64,000 nt of DNA from Ardenticatena maritima (lineage in GTDB: Bacteria; Chloroflexota; Anaerolineae; Ardenticatenales; Ardenticatenaceae): the NCBI RefSeq assembly GCF_001306175.1, contig NZ_LGKN01000004.1:372001-436000 (forward strand), written 5' to 3'. A model generated the notes under the pieces. It was not told the origin of the DNA. It worked only from the letters and a program-made list of their open reading frames with translations, and ran no database searches. The translations under genes were made by a program, and so were the position numbers. Positions 5,757 to 51,177 of this stretch are shown one piece after another. Position 1 is the stretch's first letter. Every line of letters begins with the position of its first letter.

Positions 5757-7823
<2,067 letters not shown>

Positions 7824-7840
7824 CCTGCGAGGCGAGCCCC

Positions 7841-8677
7841 ATGCCTGAACTGCCCGAAGTCGAAACCATCGCCCGCGATTTGAAAGCCGCCAACCTGGTG
7901 GGACGCCGCATCGAAGCGGCGCATGTCCGTTGGGCGCGTACCATCGCCACGCCCGACCCCGCGGCGTTTGTCGCCCGCGTGCGCGGCGCTCGCATCAACG
8001 ACGTGGGACGGCGCGCCAAATACCTGGTGCTCCCGCTCGATACCGGCGACACCCTGCTCATTCACCTGCGCATGACGGGTCGGCTGGCGCTGCCCCCCTC
8101 GCACACGCCACCCGACCCACACGAGCATGTGCTTCTCACACTGGACGATGGGCGCGATTTGCGCTTCCACGACACGCGCAAGTTTGGGCGCTGGTATCTG
8201 GTGGATGACCCGTCGCAGGTGTTGGGCAACCTGGGACCCGAACCGCTCGGCGAAGCGTTCACGCCCGAATGGCTCTACACTGCCCTGCAAGCCCATCGCC
8301 GCCAACTGAAACCCCTTCTGCTCGACCAGCGCTTCATCGCGGGGCTTGGCAACATCTACGTGGATGAAGCGCTGTGGCACGCGCAGTTGCACCCCCAGCG
8401 CCCCAGCCACACGCTCAGCCGCGCCGAAAGCGACGCCCTGCACGCCGCCATCCGTACTGTGCTCATGCGCGGCATCGCCAACATGGGCACAACGCTCGGC
8501 ACAGGCGAAGCCAATTTTTACAGCGTGGGGCGTCGGCGGGGGCGCAACCAGGACGCCTTAGCCGTCTTTCGCCGCACGGGAGAACCATGCCCACGGTGCG
8601 GCACGCCGATTGTACGCCTCGTTGTCGCCCAGCGAGGCACGCACATTTGCCCCTCGTGTCAGCGTTTGCCGGCATAA
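7841..8677 (+). CDS. mutM: Formamidopyrimidine-DNA glycosylase (Fpg)
   Basis: 278 aa bifunctional base-excision enzyme that removes oxidised purines such as 8-oxoguanine and nicks the abasic site. After Met removal it begins PELPEVE, giving the catalytic N-terminal proline and Glu. The helix-two-turn-helix region contains the LLDQRFIAGLGNIYVDEALW signature. The C-terminal zinc finger has the pattern CPRCG-x13-HICPSC, slightly altered: the four Cys are present. Length is normal. It lies 17 bp downstream of the YyaL-type gene and ends at a bidirectional terminator. Confidence 0.96.
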   Translation: MPELPEVETIARDLKAANLVGRRIEAAHVRWARTIATPDPAAFVARVRGARINDVGRRAKYLVLPLDTGDTLLIHLRMTGRLALPPSHTPPDPHEHVLLTLDDGRDLRFHDTRKFGRWYLVDDPSQVLGNLGPEPLGEAFTPEWLYTALQAHRRQLKPLLLDQRFIAGLGNIYVDEALWHAQLHPQRPSHTLSRAESDALHAAIRTVLMRGIANMGTTLGTGEANFYSVGRRRGRNQDALAVFRRTGEPCPRCGTPIVRLVVAQRGTHICPSCQRLPA

Positions 8678-42249: not shown

Positions 42250-42445
42250 AAGAAGCGCAAGAGCGCAAAACAGATACCCCTAAACAGCATGAAAAGCGCG
42301 ATAATATCCGTGAGCGGCGCCTCAAAACAATGACCAGCGTCAGATCGCCACCGAGGTACAACGAGACAAGAAAACTCCCCCAGATACCGACCACCAAAAA
42401 TCCGTAAAGTACGGTGATTGGGGTTCTGCCGACAAGCAAGCCTCT
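42250..42445 (-). pseudogene. Decayed, truncated fourth copy of the 134-aa membrane protein
   Basis: Aligns with the central and N-terminal part of the neighbouring array genes: ITVLYGFLVVGIWGSFLVSLYL matches ATILYGFLMAGMWGSFLVSLYL. About 10 bp are missing near 42330, which shifts the frame after GGDLTLV, and the natural start and the C-terminal third are lost. It is the most distal unit of the leftward array, and its decay fits loss of selection. Confidence 0.75.
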
Positions 42446-42446
42446 T

Positions 42447-42851
42447 TCACGCAGCCAACACGCTGGTTTTATCAGTAAGTGCCTTGGCCACAAGAACCGT
42501 TGGAAGCACAAAAAGAAAGAAATGAAAAGCAATACCCCATACTATGAACGACATTGGATTTCCATCGCTCATATGGCCCCAAGCGATGAAAACCATATTA
42601 ACTATCGCTAGTACCAGGCAAAGTACGCCTATCTCTTGCTTTCGCCAAATACCCAAGAGTACAAAACAGATGCCCCAAAACATCATGAGCAGCGCGATAA
42701 TATCCGAGAGCATCGCCTCAAAACGATGCGGTCCCTCCACCAGCGTCAGATCGCCGTTGAGATACAATGAGACAAGAAAACTCCCCCACATACCGGCCAT
42801 CAAAAATCCGTAAAGTATTGTCGCCATTCTGAGCAGTTTGGTGTTTTCCAT
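42447..42851 (-). CDS. 134-aa four-helix membrane protein, array copy 1
   Basis: Four hydrophobic segments (about 10-28, 48-66, 72-92, 100-122), acidic loop LTLVEGPHRFEA after the first helix and a short polar C-terminus ending SVLAA. Family not recognised. AAAGGAGG at a good distance precedes ATG 42851. It is the leftmost intact unit of a tandem array with a period of exactly 469 bp. From about 42590 to its start it is identical to copy 2 at the DNA level, but its C-terminal coding end differs (WGIAFHFFLF instead of WGIIFDLFLL), so the array is mosaic. Base composition is more AT-rich than the neighbours. Confidence 0.8.
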   Translation of the reverse strand: MENTKLLRMATILYGFLMAGMWGSFLVSLYLNGDLTLVEGPHRFEAMLSDIIALLMMFWGICFVLLGIWRKQEIGVLCLVLAIVNMVFIAWGHMSDGNPMSFIVWGIAFHFFLFVLPTVLVAKALTDKTSVLAA

Positions 42852-42880
42852 TGCTTGTAGCCTCCTTTACGGTCATCATG

Positions 42881-42900
42881 GGGCTGCCAGTAGGCAGCCC
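42881..42900 (-). repeat. Spacer hairpin, array copies 1/2
   Basis: GGGCTGCC-TACT-GGCAGCCC, perfect 8-bp stem in the spacer between array genes, with no U-tract. Present identically 469 bp away. Confidence 0.7.
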
Positions 42901-42915
42901 TTTCATGCAGAACGC

Positions 42916-43320
42916 TCACGCAGCCAACACGCTGGTTTTATCAGTAAGTGCCTTGGTCACAAGAACCGTGGGAAGCACCAAAAGGAAGAGATCGAAAATA
43001 ATGCCCCATACTATGAATGACATTGGATTTCCATCGCTCATGTGAACCCATGCAATAAAAACCATATTAACTATCGCTAGTACCAGGCAAAGTACGCCTA
43101 TCTCTTGCTTTCGCCAAATACCCAAGAGTACAAAACAGATGCCCCAAAACATCATGAGCAGCGCGATAATATCCGAGAGCATCGCCTCAAAACGATGCGG
43201 TCCCTCCACCAGCGTCAGATCGCCGTTGAGATACAATGAGACAAGAAAACTCCCCCACATACCGGCCATCAAAAATCCGTAAAGTATTGTCGCCATTCTG
43301 AGCAGTTTGGTGTTTTCCAT
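42916..43320 (-). CDS. 134-aa four-helix membrane protein, array copy 2
   Basis: Same length and layout as its neighbours. The N-terminal two thirds equal copy 1 except for a Val for Gly in AWVHMSDG, while the C-terminal end (WGIIFDLFLLVLPTVLVTKAL) resembles copy 3. This pattern is expected from unequal crossing-over or gene conversion. ATG 43320 with AAAGGAGG. Presumably transcribed from the promoter at 43842-43870 together with copies 3 and 1. Confidence 0.8.
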   Translation of the reverse strand: MENTKLLRMATILYGFLMAGMWGSFLVSLYLNGDLTLVEGPHRFEAMLSDIIALLMMFWGICFVLLGIWRKQEIGVLCLVLAIVNMVFIAWVHMSDGNPMSFIVWGIIFDLFLLVLPTVLVTKALTDKTSVLAA

Positions 43321-43349
43321 TGCTTGTAGCCTCCTTTACGGTCATCATG

Positions 43350-43369
43350 GGGCTGCCAGTAGGCAGCCC
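43350..43369 (-). repeat. Spacer hairpin, array copies 2/3
   Basis: Identical to the hairpin at 42881-42900, exactly one period (469 bp) away. Confidence 0.7.
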
Positions 43370-43384
43370 TTTCATGCAGAACGC

Positions 43385-43789
43385 TCACGCAGCCAACACG
43401 CTGGTTTTATCAGTAAGTGCCTTGGTCACAAGAACCGTGGGAAGCACAAAAAGGAAGAGATCGAAAATAATGCCCCATACTATGAACGACATTGGATTTC
43501 CATCGCTCATGTGGCCCCATACGATGAAAACCATATCAACTATCACTAGTACCAGGCAAAGTACGCCTATCTCTTGCTTTCGCCAAACGCCCAAGAGCAC
43601 AAAACAGATGCCCCAAAACATCATAAGAAGCGTCTGGATATCCGAGAGCATCGCCTCAAACCGATACGGCCCCTCCACTAACGTCAGATCGCCGTTGAGA
43701 TACAATGAGACAAGAAGAATCCCGAATATACCGTCTACCAAAAATCCATAAAGTATTGTCGCCATTCTGAGCAGTTTAGTGTTTTCCAC
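43385..43789 (-). CDS. 134-aa four-helix membrane protein, array copy 3 (promoter-proximal)
   Basis: The start is GTG 43789, aligned with the ATG of the other copies and preceded by AGGAGGCTACAAGC; a GTG at 43807 would swallow the ribosome-binding site. The sequence differs most in the first helix (FLVDGIFGILLVSLYL) and second (LSDIQTLLMMFWGI). It is the first gene after the dyad-controlled promoter, with a leader of about 46 nt. Function unknown; tandem variable small membrane proteins are seen, for example, among immunity proteins, but nothing here proves that. Confidence 0.8.
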   Translation of the reverse strand: MENTKLLRMATILYGFLVDGIFGILLVSLYLNGDLTLVEGPYRFEAMLSDIQTLLMMFWGICFVLLGVWRKQEIGVLCLVLVIVDMVFIVWGHMSDGNPMSFIVWGIIFDLFLFVLPTVLVTKALTDKTSVLAA

Positions 43790-43841: not shown

Positions 43842-43870
43842 AGTATAGCAATCCAAAATACGCTTGTATA
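43842..43870 (-). promoter_or_regulatory. Promoter of the 134-aa array
   Basis: TATACA as a non-consensus -35, exactly 17 bp, then TATACT. Start near 43835. Same geometry as at 49977-50005 and 51015-51043. Confidence 0.6.
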
Positions 43871-43871
43871 G

Positions 43872-43906
43872 GTACACGCGTACTCAATTCATGAGTACAT
43901 TTGTAC
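43872..43906. promoter_or_regulatory. 35-bp dyad operator, site A
   Basis: GTAC-N4-GTAC-N11-GTAC-N4-GTAC, with GTACTCA / TGAGTAC arms around the centre. It abuts the -35 hexamer with a 1-bp gap. Identical spacing at sites B (50007) and C (51045). One base differs in the left spacer (ACGC for ACGT). Confidence 0.75.
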
Positions 43907-49730: not shown

Positions 49731-49922
49731 TTATGCATCGGCATACCACACCTTGCGAATCAACACCACTGTTGCGATGAGTGGAGCCAAGCCCAGCGGA
49801 ACGGTCGCAATGATGTATTTGGCGGCTTTGGGCATCGTGTGGCGCACTGTGTAAACCACAACAAGCGGATAGACAACGAAAATAAGCAAAAACAAGATTG
49901 AAAGTTCGGGCATGCCAATCAT
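49731..49922 (-). CDS. 63-aa two-helix membrane protein
   Basis: Two hydrophobic segments (about residues 6-26 and 36-56) joined by a short basic turn, with a KVWYADA tail. AAGGAGG lies 8 nt before ATG 49922. It is the first gene after operator site B, with a leader of about 48 nt, nearly the same as for the 134-aa array. No family recognised. AT-richer than its neighbours. Confidence 0.7.
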   Translation of the reverse strand: MIGMPELSILFLLIFVVYPLVVVYTVRHTMPKAAKYIIATVPLGLAPLIATVVLIRKVWYADA

Positions 49923-49976
49923 GCAAAAGTCCTCCTTAGAGATGTTTAGAGCTGTGGCATATCCTCGTGCAAAATT

Positions 49977-50005
49977 ATTCTAACAAACCTTTCCTCTTCT
50001 GTATA
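49977..50005 (-). promoter_or_regulatory. Promoter of the 63-aa gene
   Basis: TATACA, 17 bp, TAGAAT on the minus strand, start near 49970. Confidence 0.55.
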
Positions 50006-50006
50006 G

Positions 50007-50041
50007 GTACACGTGTACTCAATTCATGAGTACATTTGTAC
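50007..50041. promoter_or_regulatory. 35-bp dyad operator, site B
   Basis: GTAC-N4-GTAC-N11-GTAC-N4-GTAC; the first half is a perfect 12-bp palindrome, GTACACGTGTAC. One base separates it from the -35 hexamer at 50000-50005. Confidence 0.75.
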
Positions 50042-50294
50042 TCATTGCTTTTTTGAAAATTCTAACTATTCACATGCACCATCTTCTTCTCACTTTCCCC
50101 ACCACAATAAAAAACCGCCTCCCAACAGAGGAAGGCGGTGGTTTTCTTTCCCCACTATGAAACAATAAAACACGTCTAAAGTCCCCAGCGGACCGGATCG
50201 AACACATCGTCTTGGAATATCACCTCCCTTGTCCGCCTGCTTCCATAGAGGCGATATCCCTCAACTGGGCATCGCTTCAGTCGAACGGCCTCAT

Positions 50295-50756
50295 CTAACG
50301 ATGTCGAGTAAAAACAAACTTTGAAACTTCTGTAAAGAATAACCAACTTATACCCAAGAGTAAAAATGAAGGGGTTTTCATTTGAACCACAATACGATAC
50401 GCACCATACATTTGCGAGCCTGCCAGCCAGTGGAATACTTCTTCAAATATTCGTAGGCTTTGTATTTTGAAAGAGAAGTAAACAAAAAAATGAAAAAGCG
50501 CAACACTTCCCAAAATAATTGGTGCTCTCACGGTATGAGCATAAAATAGCCGTATGTACCAATATCCAATCAGCCCCATCCACAATACTACCCAGTAAAT
50601 CCATGATTTCCACCAGAATATTGTTGGGAAAAATGGCCAAGGGCCTCCCTGTTCGTGAGAAATCCAAGGCCATCGTAATTCCGTCCATAAACTTAGGAGC
50701 CATACGCCAATAGCCGCTACTGTTACAAAAAGAGTAGGAGATTTACTCCACCGCAT
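50295..50756 (-). CDS. 153-aa membrane protein in the repeat-flanked cassette
   Basis: Four hydrophobic segments (about 8-24, 45-68, 76-96 and 126-146), very rich in Trp and Phe, with a basic C-terminal FTRHR. No family recognised. GAGGAGG at 6 nt precedes ATG 50756. The gene is clearly AT-richer than the flanking amidase and cimA genes, which suggests transfer. It lies between two 171-bp repeats, downstream of operator C (leader about 250 nt with relic frames). A small Trp-rich membrane protein may be a defence, immunity or stress factor; that is speculation. Confidence 0.65.
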   Translation of the reverse strand: MRWSKSPTLFVTVAAIGVWLLSLWTELRWPWISHEQGGPWPFFPTIFWWKSWIYWVVLWMGLIGYWYIRLFYAHTVRAPIILGSVALFHFFVYFSFKIQSLRIFEEVFHWLAGSQMYGAYRIVVQMKTPSFLLLGISWLFFTEVSKFVFTRHR

Positions 50757-50998
50757 TCATAGCCTCCTCTGCCTTATGTGATGATGGGAACCACGACATC
50801 GCTGCACAAGAGCCCTGGTAAATACAAAGGAAGAGATCCCATTGAGATCCACCACGCTGTAATGTGACTAAAGAATTACCTGCCTGGAATCCAGTAAATT
50901 CCGTTGTCGTATTTACATACATATCCCATGGTACAAAAAATGAATAAACTACATAGTTTCAGGCGAAAGATCGCGGTAATCACTTCTTGCTCATTCAT
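50743..50998 (-). pseudogene. Possible frame-shifted small gene after operator C
   Basis: A 40-codon frame from ATG 50998 (stop at 50876), only about 10 nt after the predicted transcription start, overlaps a 59-codon frame (50922 to 50743) in another phase. Joined by one frameshift they would encode about 85 residues ending in the start region of the 153-aa gene. There is no ribosome-binding site. This could be a decayed gene or chance. An open frame without a start also continues past the 153-aa gene, ending at 50176 with FDPVRWGL. Confidence 0.3.
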
Positions 50999-51014
50999 TT
51001 ATATGCAAAAAATT

Positions 51015-51043
51015 ATTCTAACAAACCTTTCCTCTTCTGCATA
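51015..51043 (-). promoter_or_regulatory. Promoter downstream of operator C
   Basis: TATGCA, 17 bp, TAGAAT on the minus strand; start near 51008, reading toward the 153-aa gene. Confidence 0.5.
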
Positions 51044-51044
51044 G

Positions 51045-51079
51045 GTACACGTGTACTCAATTCATGAGTACATTTGTAC
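51045..51079. promoter_or_regulatory. 35-bp dyad operator, site C
   Basis: Same 35 bp as site B, with GTAC tetramers at 51045, 51053, 51068 and 51076, and a 1-bp gap to the -35 hexamer. Confidence 0.75.
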
Positions 51080-51144
51080 TCATTGCTTTTTGAAAATTCT
51101 AACTATTCACATGCACCATTTTCTTCTCACTTTCCCCACCACAA

Positions 51145-51177
51145 TAAAAAACCGCCTCCCAACAGAGGAAGGCGGTT
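51145..51177 (-). terminator. Terminator of the branched-chain amino acid operon
   Basis: On the minus strand AACCGCC ... GGCGGTT with TTTTTT after it, 22 bp past the cimA stop. It is also the right end of repeat copy 2. Confidence 0.75.

What the first reader, a model, noticed from the sequence alone, without database searches (positions are those of the whole stretch)
42250..43789. Tandem array of 134-aa membrane proteins with an exact 469-bp period and a decayed end copy
Seen: stop positions 42447, 42916 and 43385 are 469 bp apart. Copies 1 and 2 are identical over several hundred bases, but copy 2's 3' end resembles copy 3, and a hairpin recurs in each spacer. The distal fourth copy is truncated and frame-shifted. 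Inference: ongoing unequal recombination or gene conversion, giving variable copy number and mosaic variants, as in arrays under dosage or diversity selection.
Basis: partly seen in the sequence, partly recalled or inferred. Interest (0 to 1): 0.65.

Follow-up and report, generated by a model that had tools for sequence, protein, structure and literature searches.

The report
Tandem array of likely orphan immunity genes
A Chloroflexota bacterium carries three recently recombined copies (and one dead copy) of a small membrane-protein gene that in its relatives sits just behind a gene for a secreted, cysteine-rich protein, which suggests stand-alone immunity genes against a secreted toxin that this genome itself no longer encodes.

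Summary
The array is real. On the minus strand lie three intact 134-aa genes (42447-42851, 42916-43320, 43385-43789) at an exact 469-bp period, and a dead fourth copy (42258-42411). Copy B is a clean mosaic: at 40 sites where A and C differ, B follows A at the first 29 and C at the last 11 (0 of 20,000 permutations as extreme). Exchange between copies is supported; diversifying selection is not (dN/dS 0.34, A-C).

The protein is a predicted four-helix membrane protein with no Pfam, NCBIfam, PHROG, PADLOC or PDB-sequence match. It is rare (6 of 396 class genomes). In all 7 loci found outside this genome it lies directly downstream of a secreted Cys-rich protein ending ...HCPKWVNPCDNNSPEGSWPDxPL or its remnant. 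This genome has no such partner, and in 3 other loci the partner is broken while the membrane gene is open. The array's promoter carries a double palindrome found 8 times here and 10 times in the congener, several times before secreted + membrane gene pairs. Best reading: an orphan immunity array for an undescribed secreted toxin, reshaped by unequal recombination. Toxicity and immunity are inferred. No second strain was available, so copy-number variation is untested.

The parts
42258..42411 (-). Copy D: decayed fourth copy, without start codon and 3' half, 10-bp internal deletion
42447..42851 (-). Copy A: 134-aa membrane protein gene
42852..42915 (-). Spacer B-A: 8-bp GC hairpin (GGGCTGCC/GGCAGCCC) then AAAGGAGG ribosome-binding site; identical to spacer C-B
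42916..43320 (-). Copy B: mosaic; 5' part identical to A, 3' part C-like, switch between CDS 269 and 270
43321..43384 (-). Spacer C-B with the same hairpin (z -2.83)
43385..43789 (-). Copy C: promoter-proximal, most divergent copy, GTG start
43842..43870 (-). Promoter-like TATACA-17-TATACT with TG before the second hexamer
   Evidence: 1 site found, 2.2 expected in shuffles, so supported by conservation at other sites, not by the scan
43872..43906 (-). Double palindrome GTACAAATGTAC-N11-GTACGCGTGTAC upstream of the promoter
50015..50041 (-). Second copy of the promoter element, before a 63-aa membrane ORF (49731-49922, -)
51053..51079 (-). Third copy of the promoter element, before a 153-aa membrane ORF (50295-50756, -)

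Best explanation
The array is a stand-alone (orphan) set of immunity-type membrane proteins. In relatives the same gene is the second gene of a two-gene unit whose first gene makes a Sec-type secreted, Cys-rich protein, most simply a secreted antibacterial toxin. This lineage lacks the first gene and has the membrane gene directly behind the shared promoter, in three open copies. Copies are multiplied and shuffled by homologous exchange across the ~390 bp of identity and the identical spacers; a dead copy at the distal end is a by-product. Shown here: the array, the mosaic, the pairing in relatives, the absence of the partner here, the shared promoter element. Inferred: that the partner is a toxin, that the membrane protein protects against it, and that extra copies help (by dose or by slightly different specificity).
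For: Pairing: 7 of 7 loci outside this genome (G001, G069, G123, G142, G187, G708, AL-N1) have the membrane gene immediately downstream, same strand, of the partner or its remnant. In the class sample of 396 genomes the membrane family is in 6, the partner (E <= 6.6e-14) in 6, both in 5 (hypergeometric P 4.5e-10, not corrected for kinship). G000 has no partner match at E <= 0.01. Partner broken, membrane gene open: G187 keeps only about the last 32 residues; G708 has an internal stop; G001 is out of frame at a 4-nt repeat. Second case: the promoter element just right of the window (C4:437884) precedes a 200-aa anchored protein; its G001 counterpart (55% identical) is the second gene behind a secreted 215-aa gene, whose start (TATTTTATGCAACG) survives here without its body. 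dN/dS about 0.3 shows that the copies are kept. Low GC (0.468 against 0.609 for the window; G001 cluster 0.495 against flanks 0.608) suits imported genes.
Against: No toxin domain was recognised in the partner and its predicted model is poor (mean pLDDT 42). G193 has the partner without this membrane family; another anchored protein follows it. The membrane family has no link to a known immunity family. The same promoter element also precedes genes that are not such pairs: an M23 peptidase, a 260-aa lipoprotein and a multi-copy RNA. The genome may be a short-read draft, so copy number and mosaic need long reads.
Confidence: 0.55

Rival explanations
1. Secreted signal plus membrane receptor or regulator: the partner is a pheromone-like or environmental signal protein and the four-helix protein senses it; extra copies tune sensitivity.
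For: LuxR/NarL-type response-regulator ORFs (named from sequence by eye) lie near the pair in three loci, and lux-box-like palindromes (recalled consensus) precede the partner in two.
Against: The model shows only four helices with short loops, no signalling domain. A receptor without its ligand should decay, yet here it is multiplied and under purifying selection.
Confidence: 0.15
2. Secretion or folding helper: the membrane protein helps to export or fold the Cys-rich partner.
For: Strict gene order, partner first, in 7 of 7 loci.
Against: In this genome, with no partner gene, the helper would have no client, but it is amplified and kept. G193 has the partner without it.
Confidence: 0.12
3. 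Envelope-stress or general membrane protein with a dosage role, unrelated to antagonism; pairing in relatives reflects co-regulation only.
For: The same promoter element precedes an M23 peptidase and other membrane proteins.
Against: The promoter element was found only in this family of bacteria, whereas the pairing also holds in distant loci in which that double palindrome was not found.
Confidence: 0.1
4. Assembly artefact: the mosaic copy or the copy number comes from short-read assembly of a repeat.
For: The genome resembles a MiSeq/SPAdes draft in 12 contigs (PMC4653789), and identical tracts of 390 bp are hard for short reads.
Against: A and C differ at 40 sites and B has 6 sites of its own, so at least three distinct sequences exist; collapse would lower, not raise, the count.
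Confidence: 0.08

Closest known systems
T7SS immunity gene strings esaG, tipC, tsaI (PMC9484751; abstract and Discussion read)
   Same: Tandem non-identical immunity paralogues that recombine through blocks of identity; [quoted passage not shown] TsaI is also a small polytopic membrane protein.
   Different: No T7SS toxin gene was seen beside this array; the partner family here looks Sec-secreted. That paper found little recombination among the membrane-type tsaI genes.
T6SS orphan immunity arrays of Vibrio cholerae (PMC5361080; abstract and one section read)
   Same: Immunity genes kept after loss or replacement of the toxin gene.
   Different: There the arrays are of unlike genes gained by displacement, not by duplication; here the copies are about 88-96% identical in-paralogues.
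SdpC/SdpI toxin and membrane immunity protein of Bacillus subtilis (recalled; search listing only)
   Same: Secreted ~200-aa protein paired with a multi-pass membrane immunity protein.
   Different: No sequence link was found; no SdpC or SdpI model was returned for these proteins.

Membership tests
Orphan immunity-gene array | Several paralogues of an immunity-type gene without the cognate secreted gene in the genome | tested here: met
   Three open copies plus one dead copy; no partner match in G000 at E <= 0.01
Orphan immunity-gene array | The same gene elsewhere sits beside its cognate secreted gene | tested here: met
   7 of 7 other loci, partner whole or as remnant
Orphan immunity-gene array | The secreted protein is toxic and the membrane protein neutralises it | not testable with these tools
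   needs expression tests; no toxin domain recognised
T7SS immunity strings (EsaG/TsaI/TipC) | Linkage to an LXG or other T7SS toxin and secretion genes | tested here: inconclusive
   None seen by eye among window ORFs of 38-56 kb; the genome was not searched for T7SS families
T7SS immunity strings (EsaG/TsaI/TipC) | Recombination between tandem paralogues through identity blocks | tested here: met
   Single switch point in B, 390-bp identical run
SdpC/SdpI | Sequence membership | tested here: inconclusive
   No such model returned by Pfam or NCBIfam; whether the libraries hold one was not checked
BlaI/MecI/CopY-type operator control | A repressor of Pfam PF03965 in the genome | tested here: not met
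   0 matches in G000; 7 of 14 control genomes matched
Known anti-phage defence protein | Match in PADLOC-DB | tested here: not met
   0 of 5 proteins at E <= 1

The most novel reading that the evidence does not exclude
Ardenticatena-type Chloroflexota own an undescribed antagonism regulon: one double-palindrome promoter element switches on several unrelated secreted-protein/membrane-immunity pairs and a multi-copy structured RNA, some secreted genes are switched by a 4-nt repeat inside the signal peptide, and this genome has disarmed the pairs and kept and multiplied the immunity genes.
Probability: 0.3. Interest if true: 0.75.

Novelty: new variant of a known kind. Interest (0 to 1): 0.52.

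Why it matters
Orphan immunity arrays are known from T6SS, T7SS and contact-dependent systems of well-studied bacteria. Here the candidate toxin and immunity families matched no described family, occur in Chloroflexota, several of them thermophilic, and come with a promoter element that points to further candidate pairs. If the partner is a toxin, this is a new antibacterial protein family with a ready-made immunity set to test, and a clear example of a membrane-type immunity gene that recombines between tandem copies.

Tried and rejected
BlaI/CopY control: the boxes read as TACAnnTGTA (recalled consensus), but PF03965 is absent from G000. HtpX, L25/MreB and LysM/C39 genes as members of the regulon: first thought so (note), then dropped, because the promoter element in those places precedes a short RNA-like unit with its own terminator. 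Structure of the partner: too poor to search. Fold of the membrane protein: no Foldseek match at E <= 0.001; VIA-align best is CD9 tetraspanin, Z 11.3, rmsd 3.8, 120 aligned, within the range the tool gives for common helical bundles. Viral contigs and plasmids gave no partner relative; named genome contigs gave none for the single membrane protein. Homologs of the 153-aa window protein: only itself in 298 genomes. An open frame of about 70 codons just upstream of the 153-aa gene could be the remnant of a secreted gene, but chance is not excluded. Rows dropped before counts: G067 (E 0.007, inside a 762-aa frame); six partner rows at E 0.0019-0.0099; a 26-residue fragment G123:C242 at a contig end. 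My pattern had the wrong spacing and its zero means nothing. The 63-aa protein was queried in a wrong frame; replace those rows.

Full report
Setting. The window is contig 4, 372001-436000, of a 3.56-Mb genome in 12 contigs, 98.6% complete. Named carriers of the partner gene are Candidatus Thermoflexus, Thermoflexales and other Chloroflexi. Size and contig number suggest Ardenticatena maritima 110S (PMC4653789 and PMC4591325, whole texts read; lineage); this identity is inferred. The draft in 12 contigs was made with MiSeq and SPAdes, so long-read proof of the array is lacking.

The array. Three minus-strand genes of 134 aa lie at an exact 469-bp period. Reading order is C (43385-43789), B (42916-43320), A (42447-42851), then a dead copy D. 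Relative to B, the A protein is 96% and the C protein 89% identical. The C-B and B-A spacers are identical, 64 nt, with an 8-bp hairpin just before a strong ribosome-binding site; it has no T-run, so it is unlikely to be a terminator. D matches A and B better than C (135 of 154 against 124 of 157), has a 10-bp deletion and no start.

Recombination. At the 40 CDS sites where A and C differ, B equals A at the first 29 (positions 1-269) and C at the last 11 (270-364), without exception; 0 of 20,000 shuffles reach the maximum chi-square. The identity at offset 469 runs through 390 bp, from inside A, through the spacer, into the next 3' end. The simplest origin is an unequal crossover in a two-gene array, which yields a middle gene with the 5' part of A and the 3' part of C. 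But B has 6 private sites, all in CDS 264-342 and four of them within 264-276, whereas the rest of the duplicated block shows none; so either a patch came from a lost copy, or B is an older copy whose 5' part was overwritten by A. At least one exchange is shown and two are likely (inference). dN/dS is 0.34 for A-C and B-C and 0.19 for A-B: purifying, not diversifying.

The protein. Pfam, NCBIfam, PADLOC and PHROGs give nothing above a cut-off; the weak rows were cytochrome b C-terminal, Mac-1, DUF3784 and CD1871A. PDB sequences give none. The AlphaFold model has four helices, mean pLDDT 85.9, a generic bundle; that it lies in the membrane is inferred from its sequence.

Relatives and the partner. 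Among 199 relatives 7 had a match at E <= 0.01, this genome included (G067 dropped as chance); with the family alignment, 6 of 396 class genomes, this genome included. Directly upstream of each homolog, same strand, is a secreted-looking protein with a conserved end, CYNAxACxxLGHCPKWVNPCDNNSPEGSWPDxPL, or its remnant. The partner is in 6 of 396 class genomes at E <= 6.6e-14, plus six weak rows that I dropped, in 1 of 400 phylum genomes (G708) and in 4 named loci, three of which have the contig lengths of G142, G069 and G123. Of 8 partner loci, 7 carry the membrane gene next (G001, G069, G123, G142, G187, G708, AL-N1); G193 has another small anchored protein instead. G000 has no partner. In G187 only about the last 32 residues of the partner remain, in G708 it is interrupted, and in G001 it is out of frame at a run of five ACTC units in the signal-peptide region and lacks the middle part of the family; in all three the membrane gene is open. 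In G069, G142 and AL-N1 both genes are open; in G123 the partner is open and the membrane gene runs off the contig.

Promoter element and other pairs. A double palindrome GTACnnnnGTAC-N11-GTACnnnnGTAC precedes a TATACA-17-TATACT promoter at the array. It occurs 3 times in the window against 0.00 expected, 8 times in G000, 10 in G001, once in G004 and not in G002, G003 or G005, with no match to the reversed control. By its position, centred about 42 bases before the likely start (my count), it suits an activator. In G001 it precedes four secreted + membrane pairs: the partner pair, 224+64 aa, 238+209 aa and 215+191 aa. In G000 it precedes membrane or anchored genes without such partners: the array, a 63-aa ORF, a 153-aa ORF and a 200-aa protein that is 55% identical to the second gene of a G001 pair and follows a scar of the first gene's start. 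The remaining sites are, in G000, a 260-aa lipoprotein and three short RNA-like units, and in G001 an M23 peptidase, a 283-aa protein, a PLDc_N-like 72-aa protein behind a short broken frame (PF13396, E 1.4e-8), and three sites with the same RNA leader, one cut by a contig end. In L014 and L015 other palindromes, similar to lux boxes as I recall them, precede the partner.

Locus. GC is 0.468 at the array and 0.427 at 49.7-51.2 kb against 0.609 for the window; 15 of 1247 sliding windows of the array's length are as low. In G001 the pair cluster (GC 0.495) lies between the amidase and O-antigen-ligase-like genes, whereas in G000 these two genes are adjacent and the promoter-driven genes flank them. 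So the same neighbourhood holds such genes at different intergenic sites (inference: repeated gain and loss).

Reading. Orphan immunity genes fit best: strict pairing, absence of the secreted gene with retention of the membrane gene in this genome, decay of the secreted gene in three others, and a second case in this genome. I found no paper on these proteins in four searches, none of which used a family name, as there is none; that is weak evidence of absence.

Noticed in passing
L042:3866-4050 (+); also L019:1325-1509 (+), L041:7678-7862 (-), L045:7269-7453 (-), L046:96-280 (+): A short transcript-like unit of about 170 nt behind the same promoter element: long closing stem GGGAAGAACGG/CCGTTCTTCCC, a CACCTCC motif and, in most copies, a terminator-like hairpin with T-run; fold z -3.26 for L042 (sequences). 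Three copies in this genome, two whole and one cut by a contig end in G001; no Rfam match of note for the L042 copy.
   Followed up: partly
L013:4256, 7086 and 8460 (G001): Three promoter-driven secreted genes start with ACTC repeats inside the signal-peptide region (3, 5 and 5 units); two of the three are out of frame in the assembly, as in phase-variable genes. Assembly error is not excluded.
   Followed up: partly
window 49971-50139 and 51009-51176: A stretch of about 170 bp with the promoter element and the preceding terminator-like GC hairpin is duplicated at 97-99% identity before the 63-aa and 153-aa membrane ORFs.
   Followed up: partly
window 50740-50950 (-): Open frame of about 70 codons with two Cys that ends over the start of the 153-aa gene; possible remnant of a secreted gene.
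   Followed up: no
L013:14950-15113 and L079:60-240 (G001): Similar, not identical, repeats end one contig and begin another where the array site should be, so G001 cannot show whether it has the array there.
   Followed up: partly
L077 (G193) 6091-8358 (-): Behind a partner gene without the four-helix gene lie a 155-aa anchored protein, an apparent response-regulator ORF and a sensor-kinase ORF (named from sequence by eye).
   Followed up: no
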